Shown piece after piece: positions 6,001-49,293 of a stretch of DNA of 64,000 bases (positions are counted from its first letter, which is position 1; every line of letters starts with the position of its first letter). A program made the translations under genes and the position numbers. Below the pieces are notes generated by a model. The model did not search any database. It was given only the letters and a program-made list of their open reading frames with translations, and was not told the origin of the DNA. The stretch is from contig NC_092568.1 of the NCBI RefSeq assembly GCF_037975245.1, forward strand, positions 42,211,631-42,275,630. Reading direction: 5' to 3'. The DNA is from Apostichopus japonicus. Taxonomy: Eukaryota; Echinodermata; Holothuroidea; Aspidochirotida; Stichopodidae.

Positions 6001-9000
6001 GATGCTTGTTTACAGGACTGAACGATGAGTAATTTGGTATGAGAGAGTAATAATTAATAATAAGAATGATGTCAGAGGTATCTGAGATATCATTTGCTGT
6101 GTCATTACTCATAATTAGTATATGGGAAAATCATTGGGCTTAACTACTGTAACCTTTATGAGAGTCTATATACTGTCGTGGCTTTATGTAAATACCTTTA
6201 TCTGCATTCTTTGTTACAATTTAAACACAATGGGTGCTATTGGGGACAGCTGATAAGATAAAGACCAAACCTAAACAAGGGTTATATACATGGTATTTAT
6301 ACTTAGTAATATCATGTGCTACAGAAATTACAAAAACTTCTCCTAAGAGCTGCATGGTAATTCAAATATAAAAGAATCCAAGCAGGCCTTTGTTTGTGTG
6401 CAGGTTTCTATCGCTAGTTCCAGCTGGAGGTTAGAGAAATGAAGTTTGACACAAAGTAAAAAACCCCTGGAAGTGAAAGATTCTATCCTGCATGTTTTGT
6501 GCTGTTTTTTATCACTATCAACTATACATAATATAAAAACATGCATAGGCTGTGACATATGAATCTGAAAGCTAGGCAATAAATTACAGATCATCATCCT
6601 TGTTTTACATTCCTAAGTTTACTTTGCTTTCATTTACATTTCTAACATCCTGTTTGAAGAGTCATATGACAATTACTTTCAGAGGAAACTGAAGTCTGTA
6701 ATCCATAAGTATTGAAAATTTCAAATCATTCGAATAGAATGCCTGAGACTCACCAATAGAATTGGATTGGACTACCTACAGTAATGTACAGTATCCCATA
6801 CAACAGTACATCAGCCCCTCAGGATCAATAGAAACGTCCCATACTGTAGAAGCACTAAATGTATCAATAAATCAGCCCAGGCTCAAATGAAGTTCTTTGC
6901 ACACAAAGCATTTAAAGAAAGGTCATTTTTCAGAGATGCAATTTTTTTTGCAAAGAATGAATTTACAGAGCTGTAAAATTAAATCATGAAAACAGTCTTG
7001 TATAATGCAGTCTAGTACTACACAACAAAGGTATTTATTTTTCCAAAACAAAAAGGTGTGATATTGTCGTTTAATGCAGCAAGGTGCCATTTCCTTACAA
7101 AATAATGTAACAGGAAATAACAATATATTTAATATGGTCTAGCCACAGTGACTCTGCATATTCATTACACTCTACCTAGTCATGCTCATGATGTAATCAC
7201 TTCCCTCCAACCTATTGTTCAATCGAAAAACATCTCACATGACTCTTCAGCCAGAATATATCAATACAGTACTTTTAACCTGTATTGAACTTTTAATTAA
7301 ACAGCTGACTCTTTTTGTCATAGTTGGGGTAACCTACTTAATCTGGTTCATAAAGGATACATACATACACACTTTTCTGTACCTCTACTATTGTTCCATC
7401 TCCCAAAGCTTCCTAAAAAAGCCTCCAATGTTGAAACCTATTGTTATGTGAATTAATCTCACCATATTTAGACTTGCCCAAGTCTTCCACTTTGTCACAA
7501 ACATGGCTATAGGCTCCCTGAACAGTTTTAGTAGACCACAATTCCTATCAAATTTTGGGCACTGCATCTTGCTATACAATTATCATTTGTGTTCTCAGTC
7601 AATCTTACTAAGTATGACATTTTGTGATACAATAAATGATTTAAGGAGTTTCCACTCTTTTTTCTTTTCTTTTGTCACTTTCATATTTAATTTTACTGAC
7701 TTATTTATATATCAAGTCATGAAAATATCAAGTCATCATTTAAGACATGTAAGTCTTTTTTTTTGACCAATTGAAAATGTTCAAAACTGAAGCAAGCATT
7801 TGGAGCAGAGTAACCTCAGGTAATATCAATGAAGCATTAACCTCACAGTAATTGCCAGCATACTATTTTTAGCACTCACATGATACAGGTACACAGTATG
7901 TCAAATACAGTTCACAGGATTACAGGTTTATTACGCAACACAAATACTCTGCAGATTATTTAATAACCAGCTTGAATTATACTAGTATCAGCTCCTAGTT
8001 GTATATTTTACTTCAATTTAACAGACCAAGTGACATATAGAAATATGTTTTGATAATTTCAATTTCAAAACTAATAGTTAACAAAACAGTTCATGCTGTA
8101 GGTCTCAGAAATTGTCAAAAACACTACATTTGATCTCATAGTCGTGGTGGTGGCATACTCCTATTAGAGTTTATATCAATCCGCCAGAGTTGTCTCCTTC
8201 AGGAAAAGTGCCACAAAGCAGCATCATTTTTGATATGGCATTTTGTGGCAGCAAGTGGAAGATCATGAATTGAAATACATGTGGTGCAAAAAGTGGGTCA
8301 ATTAAGGCAATTTTACCCCTTTAAGCCTCCCAGGAGCAGCATACAAAAATTGTGGCTACCGAGTAAAAGGGTTTGTTGACTTTGACAGGCTCTTGTATGC
8401 TCATAAATCTGCATGGTCATGATACAGAAAATTGATGGTGCCATGAATGGCAAACTTGTCAGCTATCCAGGGATGGGTAGTGTTCAGCTAGTGAGAACTC
8501 TTATGTAGACTTAGAGACCATGTTACTTTTATGATAAAGTGTGTACATCAATGGGGCTAAAAAGGTGTATGCTTCCTCTTGATATCACAGGAGGCTGTTG
8601 CACCAGCCCTGTTAAAATGAACCTGCTGCACAATACATTAAATGTATGTGAATATATATGAGAACTTGAGGAAAACAGTGTTGCTACAGTATGCACAGTA
8701 GCCAAAAAAAAGCAAAGAATGAGGAAATAAGCATTTTGACTTGGTTACAATTGGTACTTTACAAATGGTGAAATTTTTCATCAGAGAACCCTTTTGTTAT
8801 ATCATACGATAGTCCCTTGTATAGTTAAAGGTTTCATGGTAACACATTACCACATCCACAACATGTAAGCACTGTACTGTCTAAGAAACATACAAGTTGA
8901 TCACAGTGAAAAGACAGCCAGACTAATTTACTAATAACAAAGAAATTTACAGGGAGTAGATTTCCTCTCATTCAAAGCAAAAAATGCAACTGGGCTATCA

Positions 9001-36866: not shown

Positions 36867-37523
36867 CTATAGTACTTGTTTTAATTTTGTAGCAACATCA
36901 GGTCGCAGAATCTCTGTTAAAAGTTCAATAAGATGCTGGTAAGATTTAAGTTTAGCCTGTTGGCATGCTGCCTTCAGGACTACATCTGTTGGAGATTTGC
37001 GCCTTTGATTACATGCTTGTTGAATCTTGTTAATCTTATCAGGTGTAAAGTCCAGCTTCCCTGCAAGGGCTTTCCAGTCATTACCAAGTTCACTTGCTAC
37101 ATCCAACACTCTTAATACTTCAAACACTTTAAGTTCATGAATTTCAAAAACCATCAGAGTTGATGAATCTGTTGCATCTAAACGCTCTGTTTCCGTCGGT
37201 TGCAGCCGGTTCTGTATAACGTTGACAACATCAGTTCTCTTCATTTTCGTTGCTATCTCTATCAATCTCTTGGGAGAAACATCTACACCTTTGTGAGAAG
37301 CTGCTTGCAAGACTGCCTTAGTAGGATCTCTTTCATTATTTTCAATTATATCAATTTCACCCACTTTAAAACCCAGTTCATCTGCTAATTTATGCCAATC
37401 GTTCCCATCAACACTTGGAGGATCAAGTTTATGCCCCAGTTGATTTAAGAAAATAATATCATTAACATTAATAGACTGAGATGAGATCTGTGGCAGGTCT
37501 TCATCACATATCACTGCTGTAAC
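36867..37523 (-). CDS. RIP-like kinase exon 7: two death domains and stop
   Basis: 657 bp ending in a stop codon. Starts V-T-A-V-I-C-D after acceptor TTGTGATAG. Encodes both death domains without an intron. The repeats share the pattern L.NDW..LA..L.F....I..I and a later helix ending RP/RTDV...L. The two copies are well diverged, so the duplication is old. Confidence 0.92.
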   Translation of the reverse strand, partial: VTAVICDEDLPQISSQSINVNDIIFLNQLGHKLDPPSVDGNDWHKLADELGFKVGEIDIIENNERDPTKAVLQAASHKGVDVSPKRLIEIATKMKRTDVVNVIQNRLQPTETERLDATDSSTLMVFEIHELKVFEVLRVLDVASELGNDWKALAGKLDFTPDKINKIQQACNQRRKSPTDVVLKAACQQAKLKSYQHLIELLTEILRPDVATKLKQVL

Positions 37524-40500: not shown

Positions 40501-43500
40501 CTTGGTGTGAACATTACTGACAAACATAAAACCAACCTGAATAATCGAATGTAAACAATATTGTACATACATGGTGTAGAACAATATTAATATCTACTAT
40601 TAACCAAAGGTAACACAGTAAACCTTTCCCTAGAGCAAGAATCTGGCATTATATGAACTCATCTTTCATGGTTTAAAGGGTGTGAAGACTCGCGCACAAA
40701 GAACGTCTCATGCTGGTAATCTGACCTAGTTTCGAATGAGGTGTAACAGAAGTGTTAGACACCACCATCGATCCCAGAAAATACACACACAGCTTGCTAC
40801 CATCAGTAATTAGACACTAGTGTACAGTCAGTAAATACAGCTGCCGTCAATACCCACAGCACAGTGTACAAACAATACAGCGATGGACATCTCAGGTTCA
40901 GCTAAAGATAACAAGGTATCATGTTTCATTACTTTCTGCATTTTGTAGCGACACGAACAAAACGTCACTTGCAAGCAACGTAAAGTTAACTTTTTTAGAT
41001 GGCCGCATGCGGTTTGGGGCGAGTCTTCAATGCCTTTAATACACTCATGGGAAGATATATCAATACATGACTTCAATCAACAAATTCTATCTACCAGATA
41101 GAGTTGTTATGTATTAAGAGTTACTAATTGTTTTCATCTCTGAAATACTAAAGCCCATCACACACTCTGCCTTTACACAATGGAACCCAACTGAACCAAT
41201 CAGCAATCATGAACATCCCAGTAGTGTGAGGGTGCTTACCATTATCACTGACCAAGCATTTGCTAGTAAGTAACAAACACTGATCTAAAATCTGCCAGAT
41301 TTACTGTTAGGAGTGGAAGTGCAGGGGTGTTTTTCAGGGGATATAACTTTGATTTTTCAAGAAATGCATCCAATCATAGGACAGGAATTTTCTTTTGCAT
41401 GTACACATTAATTCTACAGAAAGTGTATTATATTAAACACATTCTCAATATTCTCAAGTATTTCAACAGAACATCTTAGGCCTCATTATGATTCATAGTT
41501 AACTTACCCCTAAAAATGCTTCATTGTGAAGAGTACATCCATTGTGTAGAGTACATCCATTGTGTAGAGTACATCCATTGTGTAGAGTACATCCATTGTA
41601 TAGAGTACATCCATTGTGTAGAATACATCCACTGTGTAGAGTACATTGTGTAGAGTACATCCATTGTGTAGAGTACATTGTATAGAGAACATCCATTGTG
41701 TAGAGTACATTGTGTAGAGTACATCCATTGTGTAGAGTACATTGTGTAGAGTAATAAAGTACATCCACTGTGTAGAGTACATTGTGAAGAGTACATTGTG
41801 TAGAGTACATCCATTGTGTAGAGTACATCCATTGTGTAGAGTACATTGTATAGAGAACATCCATTGTGTAGAGTACATTGTAAAGAGTACATCCTTTGTG
41901 TAGAGTACATTGTGTAGAGTACATCCATTGTGTAGAGTACATTGTGTAGAGTAATAAAGTACATCCACTGTGTAGAGTACATTGTGAAGAGTACATTGTA
42001 TAGAGTACATCCATTGTGTAGAGTACATTGTGTAAAGTACATCATTTGTGTAGAATACATTGTATAGAGTACATCCATTGTGTAGAGTACATTGTATAGA
42101 GTACATCCATTGTGTAGAGTACATCCATTGTGAAGAGTACATCCATTGTGTAGAGTACATTGTATAGAGTACATCCATTGTAGAGTACATTGTGTAGAGT
42201 ACATCCATGGTGTAGAGTACATTGTATAGAGTACATCCATTGTGTAGAGTACATTGTGTAGAGTACATCCATTGTATAGAGTACATCCATTGTGTAGAGT
42301 ACATTGTGTAGAGTAATAAAGTACATCCACTGTGTAGAGTACATTGTGAAGAGTACATTGTATAGAGTACATCCATTGTGTAGAGTACATCCACTGTGTA
42401 GAGTACATTGTATAGAGTACATCTATTGTGTAGAGTACATCCATTGTGTAGAGTACATTGTGTAGAGTACATCCATTGTGTAGAGTACATCCATTGTGTA
42501 GAGTACATCCATTGTGTAGAGTACATTGTGTAAAGTACATTGTGTAGAGTACATCCATTGTGTAGAGTACATTGTATAGAGTACATCTATTGTGTAGAGT
42601 ACATCCATTGTGTAGAGTACATTGTGTAGAGTACATCCATTGTGTAGAGTACATTGTGTAGAGTACATCCATTGTAGAGTACATTGTGTAGAGTACATCC
42701 ATTGTAGAGTACATTGTGTAGAGTACATCCATTGTGTAGAGTACATTGTGTAGAGTACATCCATTGTGTAGAGTACATCCATTGTGTAGAGTACATTGTG
42801 TAGAGTAATAAAGTACATCCACTGTGTAGAGTACATTGTGAAGAGTACATTGTATAGAGTACATCCATTGTGTAGAATACATCCACTGTGTAGAGTGCAT
42901 TGTATAGAGTACATCTATTGTGTAGAGTACATCCATTGTGTAGAGTACATCCATTGTGTAGAGTACATTGTGTAGAGTACATCCATTGTGTAGAGTACAT
43001 CCATTGTGTAGAGTACATTGTGTAGAGTACATTGTGTAGAGTACATCCATTGTGTAGAGTACATTGTATAGAGTACATCTATTGTGTAGAGTACATCCAT
43101 TGTGTAGAGTACATTGTGTAGAGTACATCCATTGTGTAGAGTACATTGTGTAGAGTACATCCACTGTGTAGAGTACATTGTGTAGAGTACATGGATCCAT
43201 TGTGTAGAGTACTAAAGCACATCCAATTGCAATTGTTAGGCACAGTGTCCTTCAAACTGGTCACAAGAATTCAACTTACTTTCAAACAAGTTCTCATTGG
43301 TAATTCCTTTGTATACAAGAAGTCCAAAACTGTTGCAAAAATAAAAAGAGTAACAAACATTTAACCACTGATTCATCTTTCTCGGTTCATTAAAGCAAAG
43401 AGCTCTAATACATTTGTAATATCTGGTAAAATAACTGATACAATTATGCCATAAATGTAAACTTTCTCCTCATAGAATGTTGTCACATCCCAGATCTGTG

Positions 43501-46500
43501 GCTGCCCCTGGATAAAACATAGTTTCTATTTCCATAATGCCAGAAAAAGGACAATATTCTCAACTACTGCTGATATGTGGTAGGGGAGAATAAAGCAAAC
43601 TTATACGGTGGTTCTGAAGTGACAAGCTAGTTGTAGACATCATATTAGTATAACATGATATATCAAAGGTTTTGTATATTATGTCGAGAAAACTTTCAAA
43701 TTCTTGAGCTGTTGCATTGCACCGTACTTTACAACACCTCAAAAATATGTTTTGTCTAATTCATCCGTTAACATGCTAACATGACGAAAATTGTTCAGTT
43801 ACCGTGTTGCATGCAACTTGTCAACTAAAAATGCTCTATTTTCGACAACCATTCAACTGTACCAATATGGTATGTTTGATGAGTGTCGTGTTTCACTAAT
43901 AGCATATATCTCACCTGTTTGTTCAGAACCACCGTACCATTGGCAGGCATTAATATCTTACTTTGACATGTATCAAATTACAAGACCATTGAAGTTGTAT
44001 GCAGGAAACAGATGTTAGCTTCTGGTCCATTAAACATAACAAATTGCAAAGGACATTTTTAATCTAAAATATTTCTGATATTATCACATCTATTGAGGTT
44101 TGTACAAGATAACAAACCTTGCACATGAAAAATGATTACTTTTTACATTGACCAACTTGACATTAATGTATTCCACTAACTTGCAAGAGGTGTTGATTGC
44201 AGCATTTTGTTGAATGTCACACCAAAAGAACACATGACACAACCCAGGGGCAGATTTGGGCATTGAAGCAAGTGGCGCCTCGACCAAAACTAGCACTTTT
44301 GTGAAAAAGAAATCGGCTCCTACAGTTTTACCTCTGCTGACCTTATATACTCAATAAGGTGAAAGACATTCCAATATGAAATTTATAACAACATGTCCTT
44401 TCAGTAATGGTGTTTTACAACCCATGGGGAGGTGGGGGGACCTTTCAATCCACCATACACATTCATACACATACCACACACATGTCATATCAGCATACAA
44501 AAGATTATTTATGCTTTCAGCAAGGCATCCATTTTGATGGATTGTGGTATTGAATGTAATAACCTGTAGAGATCATCATCTTCTGTCACTCTCTTGTGAG
44601 GATTTTCAAGGAGTTGTGGGCTAATATAGGGAAGACTTCCAGATGGGGCCATGACCGACAGCTGATCTACAGTCCCTTGGCTGCTAGTACCAGAATCAAC
44701 ACCAGTCAAGCGGGCCAGTCCACAATCTGTCACCTAAGAAGAGTCACAGATTAAAGTTGCTCATAGTAACAAAAAATTAATTTCGTTAATTGAGTTGATT
44801 GATTGCATTTAAACCAGTTAATTAAATGTTTAGCATTTCATCCAAGACAAGAACATAGCAATTTTTTTAAATTTATGATTGTGATTTACAATGTCTATAC
44901 ATAATGGAAACTGTATGGGGGCCATTAAACACAGCACTGAGGGACAGGTCAAATTTTTGATAAAGGTAGTACTTGGGACTGTACTCACTCCATGAAGGAG
45001 AGTTTGACTTGTCAGTTCCTTAATTGCTTTACATAGAAAGAGGATGGTGCAGATGTGGGTGACGTGGTGCAGGCGAGAATGAGGGAGTCACATTGGTGGA
45101 GAAAACAGAATTGTGGGGAGTCAAGACAGTAGGGTAAAAGCCTAGATACATGTGAATGGTACTATGTCAATTTGACAGCAATCTATGAGTTAGTTCAGTA
45201 TTGTGTATAACATCGGTACTCACTTTAGCTTGTAGAGAGTGGGAGATTAAGATGTTTGAGGGCTTAATGTCACAATGGCTGATTTCACAGGAATGTAAAT
45301 AGCTGAAGCCTCTACAAACATCCAAGTATATTGATGTAATACTAGGCCAAATTGATGACCACTTTGCTTGGCTGATTTTGATGTTATTTCTAAGCATTTT
45401 CAAATCACAAGGCAACAGTTCCATGGCAATATGTGAACACATATTGCTTGAGTCAGCTCGAATGACAGCCTTGATATTCACAATGTAATCACTGGTGATG
45501 GCTTTCAACAAAACTGCTACTTCTGATAGGTCAACTGGTCTGCAAAAAGATTAAAGAAATTTTATAAGTAAATGTAAGTAAATATCAAGATTAAATGTGA
45601 AAACAAGTTTTAATTGACCAGAAATACATCCATTAAATACTAGACAGTTTCATTATACCAAACACAATGTGCAACCCCAGCAATTTCACCCCACTGAACA
45701 CAATGTGCAACCCCAGCAATCTCACCCCACTGAACACAATGTGCAACCCCAGCAATCTCACCCCACTGAACACAATGTGCAACCCCAGCAATCTCACCCC
45801 ACTGAACACAATGTGCAACCCCACCAAATCTCACCCCACTGAACACAATGTGCAACCCCAGCAATCTCACCCCACTGAACACAATGTGCAACCCCAGCAA
45901 TCTCACCCCACTGAACACAATGTGCAACCCCAGCAATCTCACCCCACTGAACACAATGTGCAACCCCAGCAATCTCACCCCACTGAACACAATGTGCAAC
46001 CCCAGCAATCTCACCCCACTGAACACAATGTGCAACCCCAGCAATCTCACCCCACTGAACACAATGTGCAACCCCAGCAATCTCACCCCACTGAACACAA
46101 TGTGCAACCCCAGCAATCTCACCCCACTGAACACAATGTGCAACCCCAGCAATCTCACCCCACTGAACACAATGTGCAACCCCAGCAATCTCACCCCACT
46201 GAACACAATGTGCAACCCCACCAAATCTCACCCCACTGAACACAATGTGCAACCCCAGCAATCTCACCCCACTGAACACAATGTGCAACCCCAGCAATCT
46301 CACCCCACTGAACACAATGTGCAACCCCAGCAATCTCACCCCACTGAACACAATGTGCAACCCCAGCAATCTCACCCCACTGAACAAAATGTGCAACCCC
46401 ACCAAATCTCATCCCACCAAACACACTGTGCTAGGGACTTGCACATTCAAAGCCTCCAGAATAAAAGGTCAGAAGTCGATTGAAGCAAAAAGTAACCATT

Positions 46501-47417: not shown

Positions 47418-47830
47418 TAAAGGCATTGAAGACTCGTCCCAAACCGCGTGCCGTGCTCTGAAAAAGTTAACTTTCCGTTGCTTGCAAGTGAAGTTTTCTG
47501 CTTGTTGCTACAAAATGCAGACAGTAATGAAACGTGATACCTTGTTATCTTTAGCTGGACCTGAGATGTCCATTGCTGTATCGTTTGTACACAGTGCTGT
47601 GGGTATTGACCGCAGCTAAATTTACTGACTGTACACTAGTGTCTAATTACCGAAGGTAGCAAGCTGTGTGCGTATTTTCTGGGATGGATGGTGGTGTCTA
47701 CACTGTAGCACTTCTGTTACACCTCATTTGAACCAGGGAGCTGCTACTCTAACAGTAGCAGCTCCCTGTTTGAACTAGGTCGGCTTACTAGCATTAGATG
47801 ATTCTTTTGCCCGAGTCTTCACACCCTTTA
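47418..47830 (+). mobile_element. TA-type MITE, copy 2, interrupted by a 35-bp palindrome
   Basis: Ends TAAAGGCATTGAAGACTCG and CGAGTCTTCACACCCTTTA. Body homologous to 40675-41038 inverted (for example CTTGTTATCTTTAGCTGGAC and TGACTGTACACTAGTGTCTA). Carries an extra 42 bp (palindrome plus duplicated TTTGAAC) absent from copy 1. An internal fragment recurs at 47972-48006. Confidence 0.85.
47734..47768. mobile_element. 35-bp perfect palindromic insertion with 7-bp TSD (instance 1)
   Basis: Arms CAGGGAGCTGCTACT and its exact complement with a 5-base loop (CTAAC). TTTGAAC at 47727-47733 and again at 47769-47775. The inverted MITE copy near 40725-40740 has a single TTCGAAAC at this point, i.e. 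an empty site. Confidence 0.75.
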
Positions 47831-49293
47831 ACTATTTGGGGGTATTCAGTTACAATACAGTCTGAACTTAATATAACTAGTCCTCCCATCGGATGACCTC
47901 CAAAGCTGATTTTGGTCCTCTGAAAATAAATGTGGTCCTCTGGGACAACCATTCATAAACTTGCTCTGGTACGTGATACCTTGTTATCTTTAGCTGGACC
48001 TGAGTTGTCTTTCATATGTGAGCCTTACATTGTTTATTTGATGGATAAGCGAGTTGACTTCCCCAACTTCAAAAATTCAAATCACCAATGAGTGCTACAT
48101 AATAAATGTTTAAACTTACTGTAGCAAAAGAATTTATCCTCATACAAAATACTTATCCATGCTACTTCACATGACTGTAAAACTAACACATGTGACTATA
48201 TCCTTTGCCTTTTCATAAGGATTCTTTGTTAGATATAGTCACTTAGGACATCTCACATTTTTATGTTATTATATAGTGTTAAGCAATACAGTTATCCATA
48301 ACATCTTTAGGCTCAAGTTTTGTCAGTAATAAAGATTAACATCATTTTTCTGCCCTCCCCACACCCCCTCCCCCTTCTTCTTCTTGGGAAGTCTTCATAA
48401 GTTCATGGAACATGCCTTTATTATCAAGCAAATGGTTATCATTTTTTCTATATCTGCTATTTCCCTGGGTCCCTAATTAACCCTATGTACAGGGCCTATA
48501 GATTCCCCCCCCCCCCCACACACTCCAAGGTTTACCAGAGGCCAGATTTCCCTGGACATTTCCCCTCTTCAATGGCTTACGTTGGCATCCATGCAGATTT
48601 ATAATACTGCTTATAATATCCAGACTTAAAATATCATTAACCAAGTCTGCCATATGTGTCCAAGTTTGACGTAGAAAGTTGCTAGGAATATTTCAGAAAT
48701 CAAATGGGCCATACTAATGCGACCGATTTTTAACGCACCGTATGGCTGTAATGCTGGCAGCTCATTTTAGTATGATTGAAAGTGTTGGCATGCCAGTTTG
48801 TGCACACGTACCTGTGACAGCATGATTAGTGTGAATTAAGGCACTGTACTAAAAACAGGCATTCACTAAATTGTGTTTCTTGTGGAACTAAATTAATTAT
48901 GATTAGTTGCTAGGCTAGGATATTTTTCTGATAAAAAGGTGATTAAATTTTTGAATTGGATCATGAAATTTTGTTTTACTTAAGGCTACAATTATGGCAC
49001 CATTCTGCATATAGACACACTTTCAAAATCAGTTTTGGCTTCAAAGGGGAGGGGCCACCCCTCTCTACAAACATAGAGCAGTGTCCTCCTTTATAACAAA
49101 TAAAATATGGCAATCCTACTCGTCCCATTCATGTCTGACTATACCTTTATAACTGTGGATGGTATATGTCCAGTGGTAAGAAATCAATAAAACTGTCACT
49201 TGCAGATGTTAAATATAGTCTAACTTACGGGAAGTTAGGCCTAGAGACTAGGTGTACTAGTATATTACCACTATAACTACAGTTTTGTTTAAC

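What the first reader, a model, noticed from the sequence alone, without database searches (positions are those of the whole stretch)
47727..47775. 35-bp perfect palindrome bounded by a 7-bp duplication, with a paralogous empty site
A 15-bp-arm hairpin (CAGGGAGCTGCTACT, loop CTAAC) sits in a MITE copy. The sister MITE at 40675-41038 lacks it and has one copy of the flanking 7-mer. So it arrived by an insertion that duplicated its target, yet it is too small to be an ordinary transposon: it is essentially two terminal repeats with nothing between.
Basis: seen in the sequence. Interest (0 to 1): 0.75.

Follow-up and report, generated by a model that had tools for sequence, protein, structure and literature searches.

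The report
Scars left by departed P-type transposons
The little palindrome is most likely not a miniature transposon but the scar of one that left: two short end-stubs rejoined between duplicated target letters, one of roughly three thousand scar copies in this animal genome, which form a natural record of how broken chromosomes were mended.

Summary
The palindrome and its 7-bp duplication are real and belong to a large genome-wide set: CAGGGAG...CTCCCTG with 8-38 bases between matches 3,005 times against 50 for the reversed control. In 87 host-distinct sites of the window's family (F1), 51 have an exact 7-bp duplication, 12 one with a mismatch, 24 none found. The halves are stubs of one 20-nt end, CAGGGAGCTGCTACTCTAAC, joined at varied points, often by microhomology, sometimes with copied filler. 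A second family (F2) behaves alike; its two joins with most microhomology have 386 and 390 exact copies. This is the anatomy of P-element excision junctions in flies (PMC2895639). The 7-bp GTnnnAC duplication, and in F1 the ANAGT flank, fit the P superfamily (PMC4168063), and P-type transposase genes are present. No donor element was found in the windows round 39 of 45 transposase matches or among the sampled ends, so P membership is inferred, not shown.

The parts
47727..47733 (+). left copy of the 7-bp target duplication, TTTGAAC
   Evidence: read directly; single copy in the sister MITE
47734..47753 (+). left stub: the full 20-nt transposon end CAGGGAGCTGCTACTCTAAC
   Evidence: same 20-mer 185+196 times in the genome
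47754..47768 (-). right stub: the outer 15 nt of the same end, inverted; joined to the left stub without overlap
   Evidence: last row (left 20, right 15, gap 0)
47769..47775 (+). right copy of the 7-bp target duplication, TTTGAAC
47418..47830 (.). host MITE-like element that was the target (outer limits of the inverted repeat arms, scar included)
   Evidence: (arms 47418-47443 and 47805-47830)

Best explanation
It is an excision scar (footprint) of a P-superfamily-type DNA transposon. Step 1 (shown by the duplication): an element inserted in the MITE and duplicated 7 bp. Step 2 (inferred): the transposase later cut it out with a long stagger, leaving about 20 nt (perhaps 20-21) of each transposon end as a 3' single strand at the donor site. 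Step 3 (inferred from the junctions): the two ends were joined by microhomology-mediated (polymerase-theta-like) end joining, which trims one or both stubs or copies them as filler. Here a full 20-nt left stub was joined to a 15-nt right stub. Because the two ends are inverted repeats of each other, joining them makes a near-perfect hairpin. The scar is inert; each jump repaired this way leaves one, so a few active copies can leave many scars.
For: Copies: arm 863+855 hits (up to 1 mismatch) against 6+5 reversed; 95 exact arm-gap-arm matches against 0; CAGGGAG..CTCCCTG 3,005 against 50. Duplication: exact 7 bp in 51 of 87 host-distinct F1 sites, one mismatch in 12, none found in 24 (by my arithmetic chance gives an exact match at about 0.5% of sites and a one-mismatch match at about 10%). 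Varied junctions, stubs of 0-20 nt, filler made of arm copies. Longest blunt product is 20+20 nt: 18 exact and 14 one-mismatch copies. Microhomology of at least 1 nt in 22 of 40 simple F1 joins, 0.365 expected, P 0.012. F2: the joins that rank first and second by microhomology (4 nt, 28-mer; 3 nt, 25-mer) have 386 and 390 exact copies. Published fly P junctions have the same anatomy with 8-bp TSD and 17-nt stubs (PMC2895639). TSD consensus GT..AC in both families; in F1 also A at -1 and -3, and 6 of 102 half-sites read ANAGT against 0.59 expected, the motif given for P and 1360 (PMC4168063). 45 P-type (PF21787) transposase matches in the genome; one ORF has four P-type Pfam domains.
Against: No donor element found. 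No F1 arm (up to 3 mismatches) in windows reaching 1.5 to 4 kb either side of 39 of 45 P-transposase matches; the F2-like arms there look like scars or one-sided remnants. The first 100 listed of 381 F1 and of 617 F2 20-mers contain no inward pair 0.2-10 kb apart (read by eye). My prediction that F2 would also leave 20+20 blunt joins failed: 0 hits. The stagger would be 20, not the 17 nt of the fly element; some F1 sites hint at a 21st base (A in 19 of 36 cases not explained by the partner stub; two 41-bp products). The F1 microhomology excess is modest, F2 ANAGT is 1 of 28 and not significant, and the identical F2 copies were not cleared of host duplication.
Confidence: 0.82

Rival explanations
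1. Micro-transposon: the 25-40-bp palindromes are themselves mobile units, moved in trans by a transposase that needs only the terminal 15-20 nt, or inserted as a 40-bp palindrome that then lost its centre.
For: Own 7-bp duplication at most sites; 386 and 390 identical F2 copies look like copied units; 18 exact F1 40-mers exist.
Against: Junctions vary widely between host-distinct F1 sites. The two recurrent F2 units are the top two microhomology joins. No 40-bp F2 parent exists at up to 1 mismatch. Some sites lost the right stub and flank together (L047, L048, L153, L160). That P transposase needs internal sequence is the title of a reference in PMC7776569, not tested here.
Confidence: 0.07
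2. Excision scar of a DNA transposon of another, uncharacterised superfamily that also cuts about 20 nt inside its ends.
For: No donor with P transposase found; stagger 20 rather than 17.
Against: 7-bp GT..AC target, ANAGT flank in F1 and resident P-type transposases; PMC7776569 names the 17-nt stagger as setting P apart from other characterised cut-and-paste elements (passage).
Confidence: 0.1
3. Internally deleted elements: gap repair after excision stopped early and left two ends, with no special cleavage position.
For: Known for P elements as SDSA plus end joining (passage of PMC2895639); filler occurs.
Against: Incomplete synthesis should leave stubs longer than 20 nt with shared subterminal sequence; none seen in the 87 F1 sites: one-sided sites share no inner sequence.
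Confidence: 0.04
4. Local templated repair or chance palindrome in one MITE copy.
For: None beyond the single site.
Against: Thousands of copies with their own duplications.
Confidence: 0.01

Closest known systems
Drosophila P-element excision junctions: end joining at 17-nt 3' overhangs (PMC2895639, section 7 and passages seen)
   Same: TSD - stub - microhomology, blunt join or templated insert - stub - TSD; longest stubs set by the cleavage position; inserts copied from nearby sequence
   Different: Here 20-nt stubs, 7-bp TSD, natural and in thousands, other end sequence; donor not seen
Galileo and 1360, P superfamily (PMC2775673 and PMC4168063, passages seen)
   Same: 7-bp TSD with GTA(n)TAC-like consensus (Galileo); ANAGT...ACTNT target motif (stated for P and 1360)
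   Different: Known as resident copies; here only scars. AANGT, the Galileo form, was seen in 0 of 102 F1 and 1 of 28 F2 half-sites
Zebrafish Pdre2 / THAP9 elements (PMC10983969, passages seen)
   Same: P-type element of an animal outside flies
   Different: 8-bp TSD, 13-bp TIR of another sequence
MITEs (general knowledge)
   Same: Short, inverted repeats, TSD, many copies
   Different: No interior, no fixed unit, variable centre; by our reading not an element in its present form

Membership tests
Excision footprint of a transposon with a long internal stagger | Stubs of both transposon ends between an intact target duplication | tested here: met
   51 of 87 host-distinct F1 sites exact, 12 with one mismatch, 24 none found
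Excision footprint of a transposon with a long internal stagger | Stub length capped at a fixed position inside the end | tested here: met
   F1 left runs stop at 20 (57 of 87 reach it, in a sample partly chosen by the 20-mer); 20+20 blunt joins 18 exact; 21 possible at some sites; F2 cap less sure, no 40-mer
Excision footprint of a transposon with a long internal stagger | Varied joins with microhomology or templated inserts | tested here: met
   F1 excess modest (P 0.012)
P superfamily | Palindromic 7- or 8-bp target with GT..AC and flanking ANAGT/ACTNT | tested here: met
   GT..AC in F1 and F2; ANAGT 6 of 102 F1 half-sites against 0.59 expected, F2 1 of 28 not significant
P superfamily | An element with these ends that encodes a P-type transposase | tested here: inconclusive
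   P transposases present; none joined to these ends in windows round 39 of 45 matches
P superfamily | GTP-dependent staggered cleavage by the transposase | not testable with these tools
   needs biochemistry
Drosophila P element itself | 17-nt stagger, 8-bp TSD, ends CATGATGAAATAACATA | tested here: not met
   20 nt, 7 bp, CAGGGAG... (fly values)
MITE or micro-transposon | A fixed unit copied between sites | tested here: not met
   variable junctions in F1; the two recurrent F2 units are the top microhomology joins, though their independence was not tested

The most novel reading that the evidence does not exclude
The donor transposons are kept out of the sequenced genome: scar copies outnumber detected donors by thousands to none because excision is regulated or near-obligatory (elements confined to a germ-line, episomal or other lineage-limited state), so that this animal carries a P-type family visible only by its scars, cut 20 rather than 17 nt inside its ends.
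Probability: 0.06. Interest if true: 0.9.

Novelty: new variant of a known kind. Interest (0 to 1): 0.62.

Why it matters
P-element scars are known from fly experiments. Here some 3,000 natural copies, with the original break ends readable, give a large record of how an animal germ line joins double-strand breaks; two families with the same break layout but different terminal microhomology act as a built-in comparison (F1 leaves blunt 20+20 joins, F2 none at up to one mismatch). It also suggests a P-type clade with a 20-nt stagger and a 7-bp target, known so far only from what it left behind, and warns that such short palindromes can be mistaken for tiny transposons.

Tried and rejected
Donor search. 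Windows round P-transposase matches: no F1 arm (up to 3 mismatches) in 39 of 45 (the six not looked at are C19:10313262 and C16:5716642, 5737914, 6079806, 29598828, 29993969). A de novo search for TIR plus 7-8-bp TSD found none in 30 of those windows. Borders between some related P copies, read by eye, show no TIR. One P locus, L029, has a 43-bp inverted match (86%) about 7.2 kb apart with other end letters; not pursued. DNA beyond one one-sided arm (L047) is single copy, so not a repeated donor; the one-sided sites share no inner sequence.

Considered and rejected: flush-cutting elements such as hAT (they leave a few bases; recalled, not searched); RNA or regulatory hairpin (the unit varies and lies between duplications); chance (controls). 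Failed prediction: F2 40-mer, 0 hits. I then explained it by the 4-nt terminal microhomology; the 28- and 25-mers had already been seen to be common in the list, and the whole-genome counts were made afterwards. The L048 row of the alignment was given in the wrong orientation and is not used.

Not done: identity of the species; clearing the F2 counts of host duplication; listing beyond the first 100 places of any pattern. Rows dropped: for F1, loci L021-L036 and L107-L126 and the duplicates L038 and L044 were left out, and the script skipped sites with under 20 bases left or 70 right of the arm.

Full report
Observation.

Genome-wide. The window is G000:C8:42211631-42275630 of a 671.6-Mb genome. 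The 15-nt arm has 863+855 hits at up to one mismatch against 6+5 for the reversed control, 95 exact arm-gap-arm matches with 0-30 bases between (control 0), and the longer arm CAGGGAGCTGCTACTCTAAC has 185+196 exact hits (control 0). Twenty loci, then windows, show the same picture at most sites: an arm, a partner arm of 0-20 nt, a 7-bp duplication. Several hosts are themselves repeats that carry one scar to many places (largest groups 12 and 11 of 138 sites), so I counted hosts once: 87. If that ratio held genome-wide, the 3,005 copies would stand for fewer than 2,000 events; this is an extrapolation.

Anatomy. Of 87 host-distinct F1 sites, 51 have an exact 7-bp duplication, 12 one with a mismatch (a few of these may be chance), 24 none found; among the 24 some have a decayed copy (L037, L150, L158) and others have lost the right stub with its flank (L047, L048, L153, L160). 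Of the 63 with a duplication, 40 are simple joins with no extra base and 23 have extra or mutated bases. Filler is in some sites a further copy of the arm in 19-nt register (L059, L106, L149). The arm runs to 20 nt and then stops; what follows is the partner stub, filler, or unrelated DNA. In 36 cases where the partner does not explain base 21 it is A 19, T 8, G 6, C 3, in good part mutated partner stubs (AGC, 7) and arm-copy filler (AGG, 5); two 41-bp products (C8:34994484; L133) would also fit an A. A 21-nt end at some sites is therefore not excluded.

Second family. Scanning the DNA then held for TSD7-CAGGG...CCCTG-TSD7 turned up two sites with another arm. Searches gave 493+481 hits for a piece of it (up to 1 mismatch; control 3+2) and 3,005 for the shared ends CAGGGAG and CTCCCTG 8-38 apart (control 50; both families and other variants together). 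Its end reads CAGGGAGTTGTTATGGAACA (323+294 exact; many of these are the 28-mer product, which contains the 20-mer whatever the true end, so the F2 cap is less sure than that of F1). Of 24 host-distinct F2 sites in the held DNA, 14 have an exact duplication, 7 one mismatch, 3 none. None of the 20 windows fetched for F2 looked like a donor.

Mechanism. If a 20-nt 3' single strand is left on either side, joins should lean to microhomology. For F1 the strand's last base finds only one-base partners; 22 of 40 simple joins use at least one base (0.365 expected from random stub pairs, P 0.012) and blunt 20+20 products exist (18 exact, 14 with one mismatch). For F2 the last four bases AACA pair with TGTT inside the partner, giving the 28-mer, and AAC with GTT gives the 25-mer: these rank first and second of all joins by microhomology and have 386 and 390 exact copies; they make up 14 of the 33 F2-like sites that I read by eye off the list. 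The blunt 40-mer has none. I had expected some 40-mers there; the explanation came after that result. Identical F2 copies were not cleared of host duplication, which leaves some room for the rival that they were copied as units.

Comparison. PMC2895639 (section 7 read; passages) tabulates fly P{wa} junctions: 8-bp target, up to 17 nt of end on either side, microhomology, blunt or templated insert, target. PMC7776569 (passages) states that the P transposase cuts 17 bp inside the inverted repeat, making long 3' extensions, and that this sets it apart from the other characterised cut-and-paste elements. PMC2775673 and PMC4168063 (passages) give 7-bp duplications, GTAGTAC or GTATTAC, for Galileo, and ANAGT/ACTNT target flanks for P and 1360. 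Here the duplication is GT..AC in both families, palindromic; in F1 A is favoured at -1 and -3. PMC10983969 (passages) gives 8 bp for zebrafish Pdre2. So: it works like a P-element excision scar, strongly supported; that it is a P-superfamily scar is probable, since the donor was not found.

Donors. The genome has 45 PF21787 matches; a 763-aa open frame carries PF12017, PF21787, PF21788 and PF21789. No F1 arm lies within the windows taken round 39 of the 45. Scars accumulate with every jump repaired by end joining while donors do not, so a handful of copies, now lost or not seen, would suffice. Donors in places not listed, in withheld stretches, farther from the transposase than my windows, or with changed ends are not excluded.

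Print. Searches of the held library (listings only, apart from the passages and the section named) showed no account of a natural genome-wide set of P-type excision scars; the library lacks most subscription journals.

Noticed in passing
window 47971-48009: A 39-nt piece 97% identical to the MITE interior at 47532-47570 lies outside the MITE.
   Followed up: no
window 41499-43200 and 45640-46483: Long repetitive ORFs that look like tandem arrays of short units.
   Followed up: no
window 36867-37514 (-): ORF with a Death domain (PF00531, E 9.8e-25), consistent with an animal genome.
   Followed up: partly
G000 C1:1238968-1310568: Six 40-bp near-palindromes of a further variant end (CAGGGAGCTGTTACTCTAAC...) within 72 kb, perhaps one scar amplified with a local repeat.
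   Followed up: no
L093: One scar appears nested in another, as if a second element inserted into an older scar and left again.
   Followed up: no
L088: Two one-sided arms 48 bp apart pointing outwards, each followed by unrelated DNA.
   Followed up: no
L111, L187-L189 (C16:5.35-6.08 Mb): Local cluster of related P-transposase copies whose RNase-H match begins inside the profile (position 61-76), as if split by an intron.
   Followed up: partly
L029:726-767 and 7952-7993: 43-bp inverted match (86%) 7.2 kb apart round a P-transposase match; possible ends of another P family with other letters.
   Followed up: no
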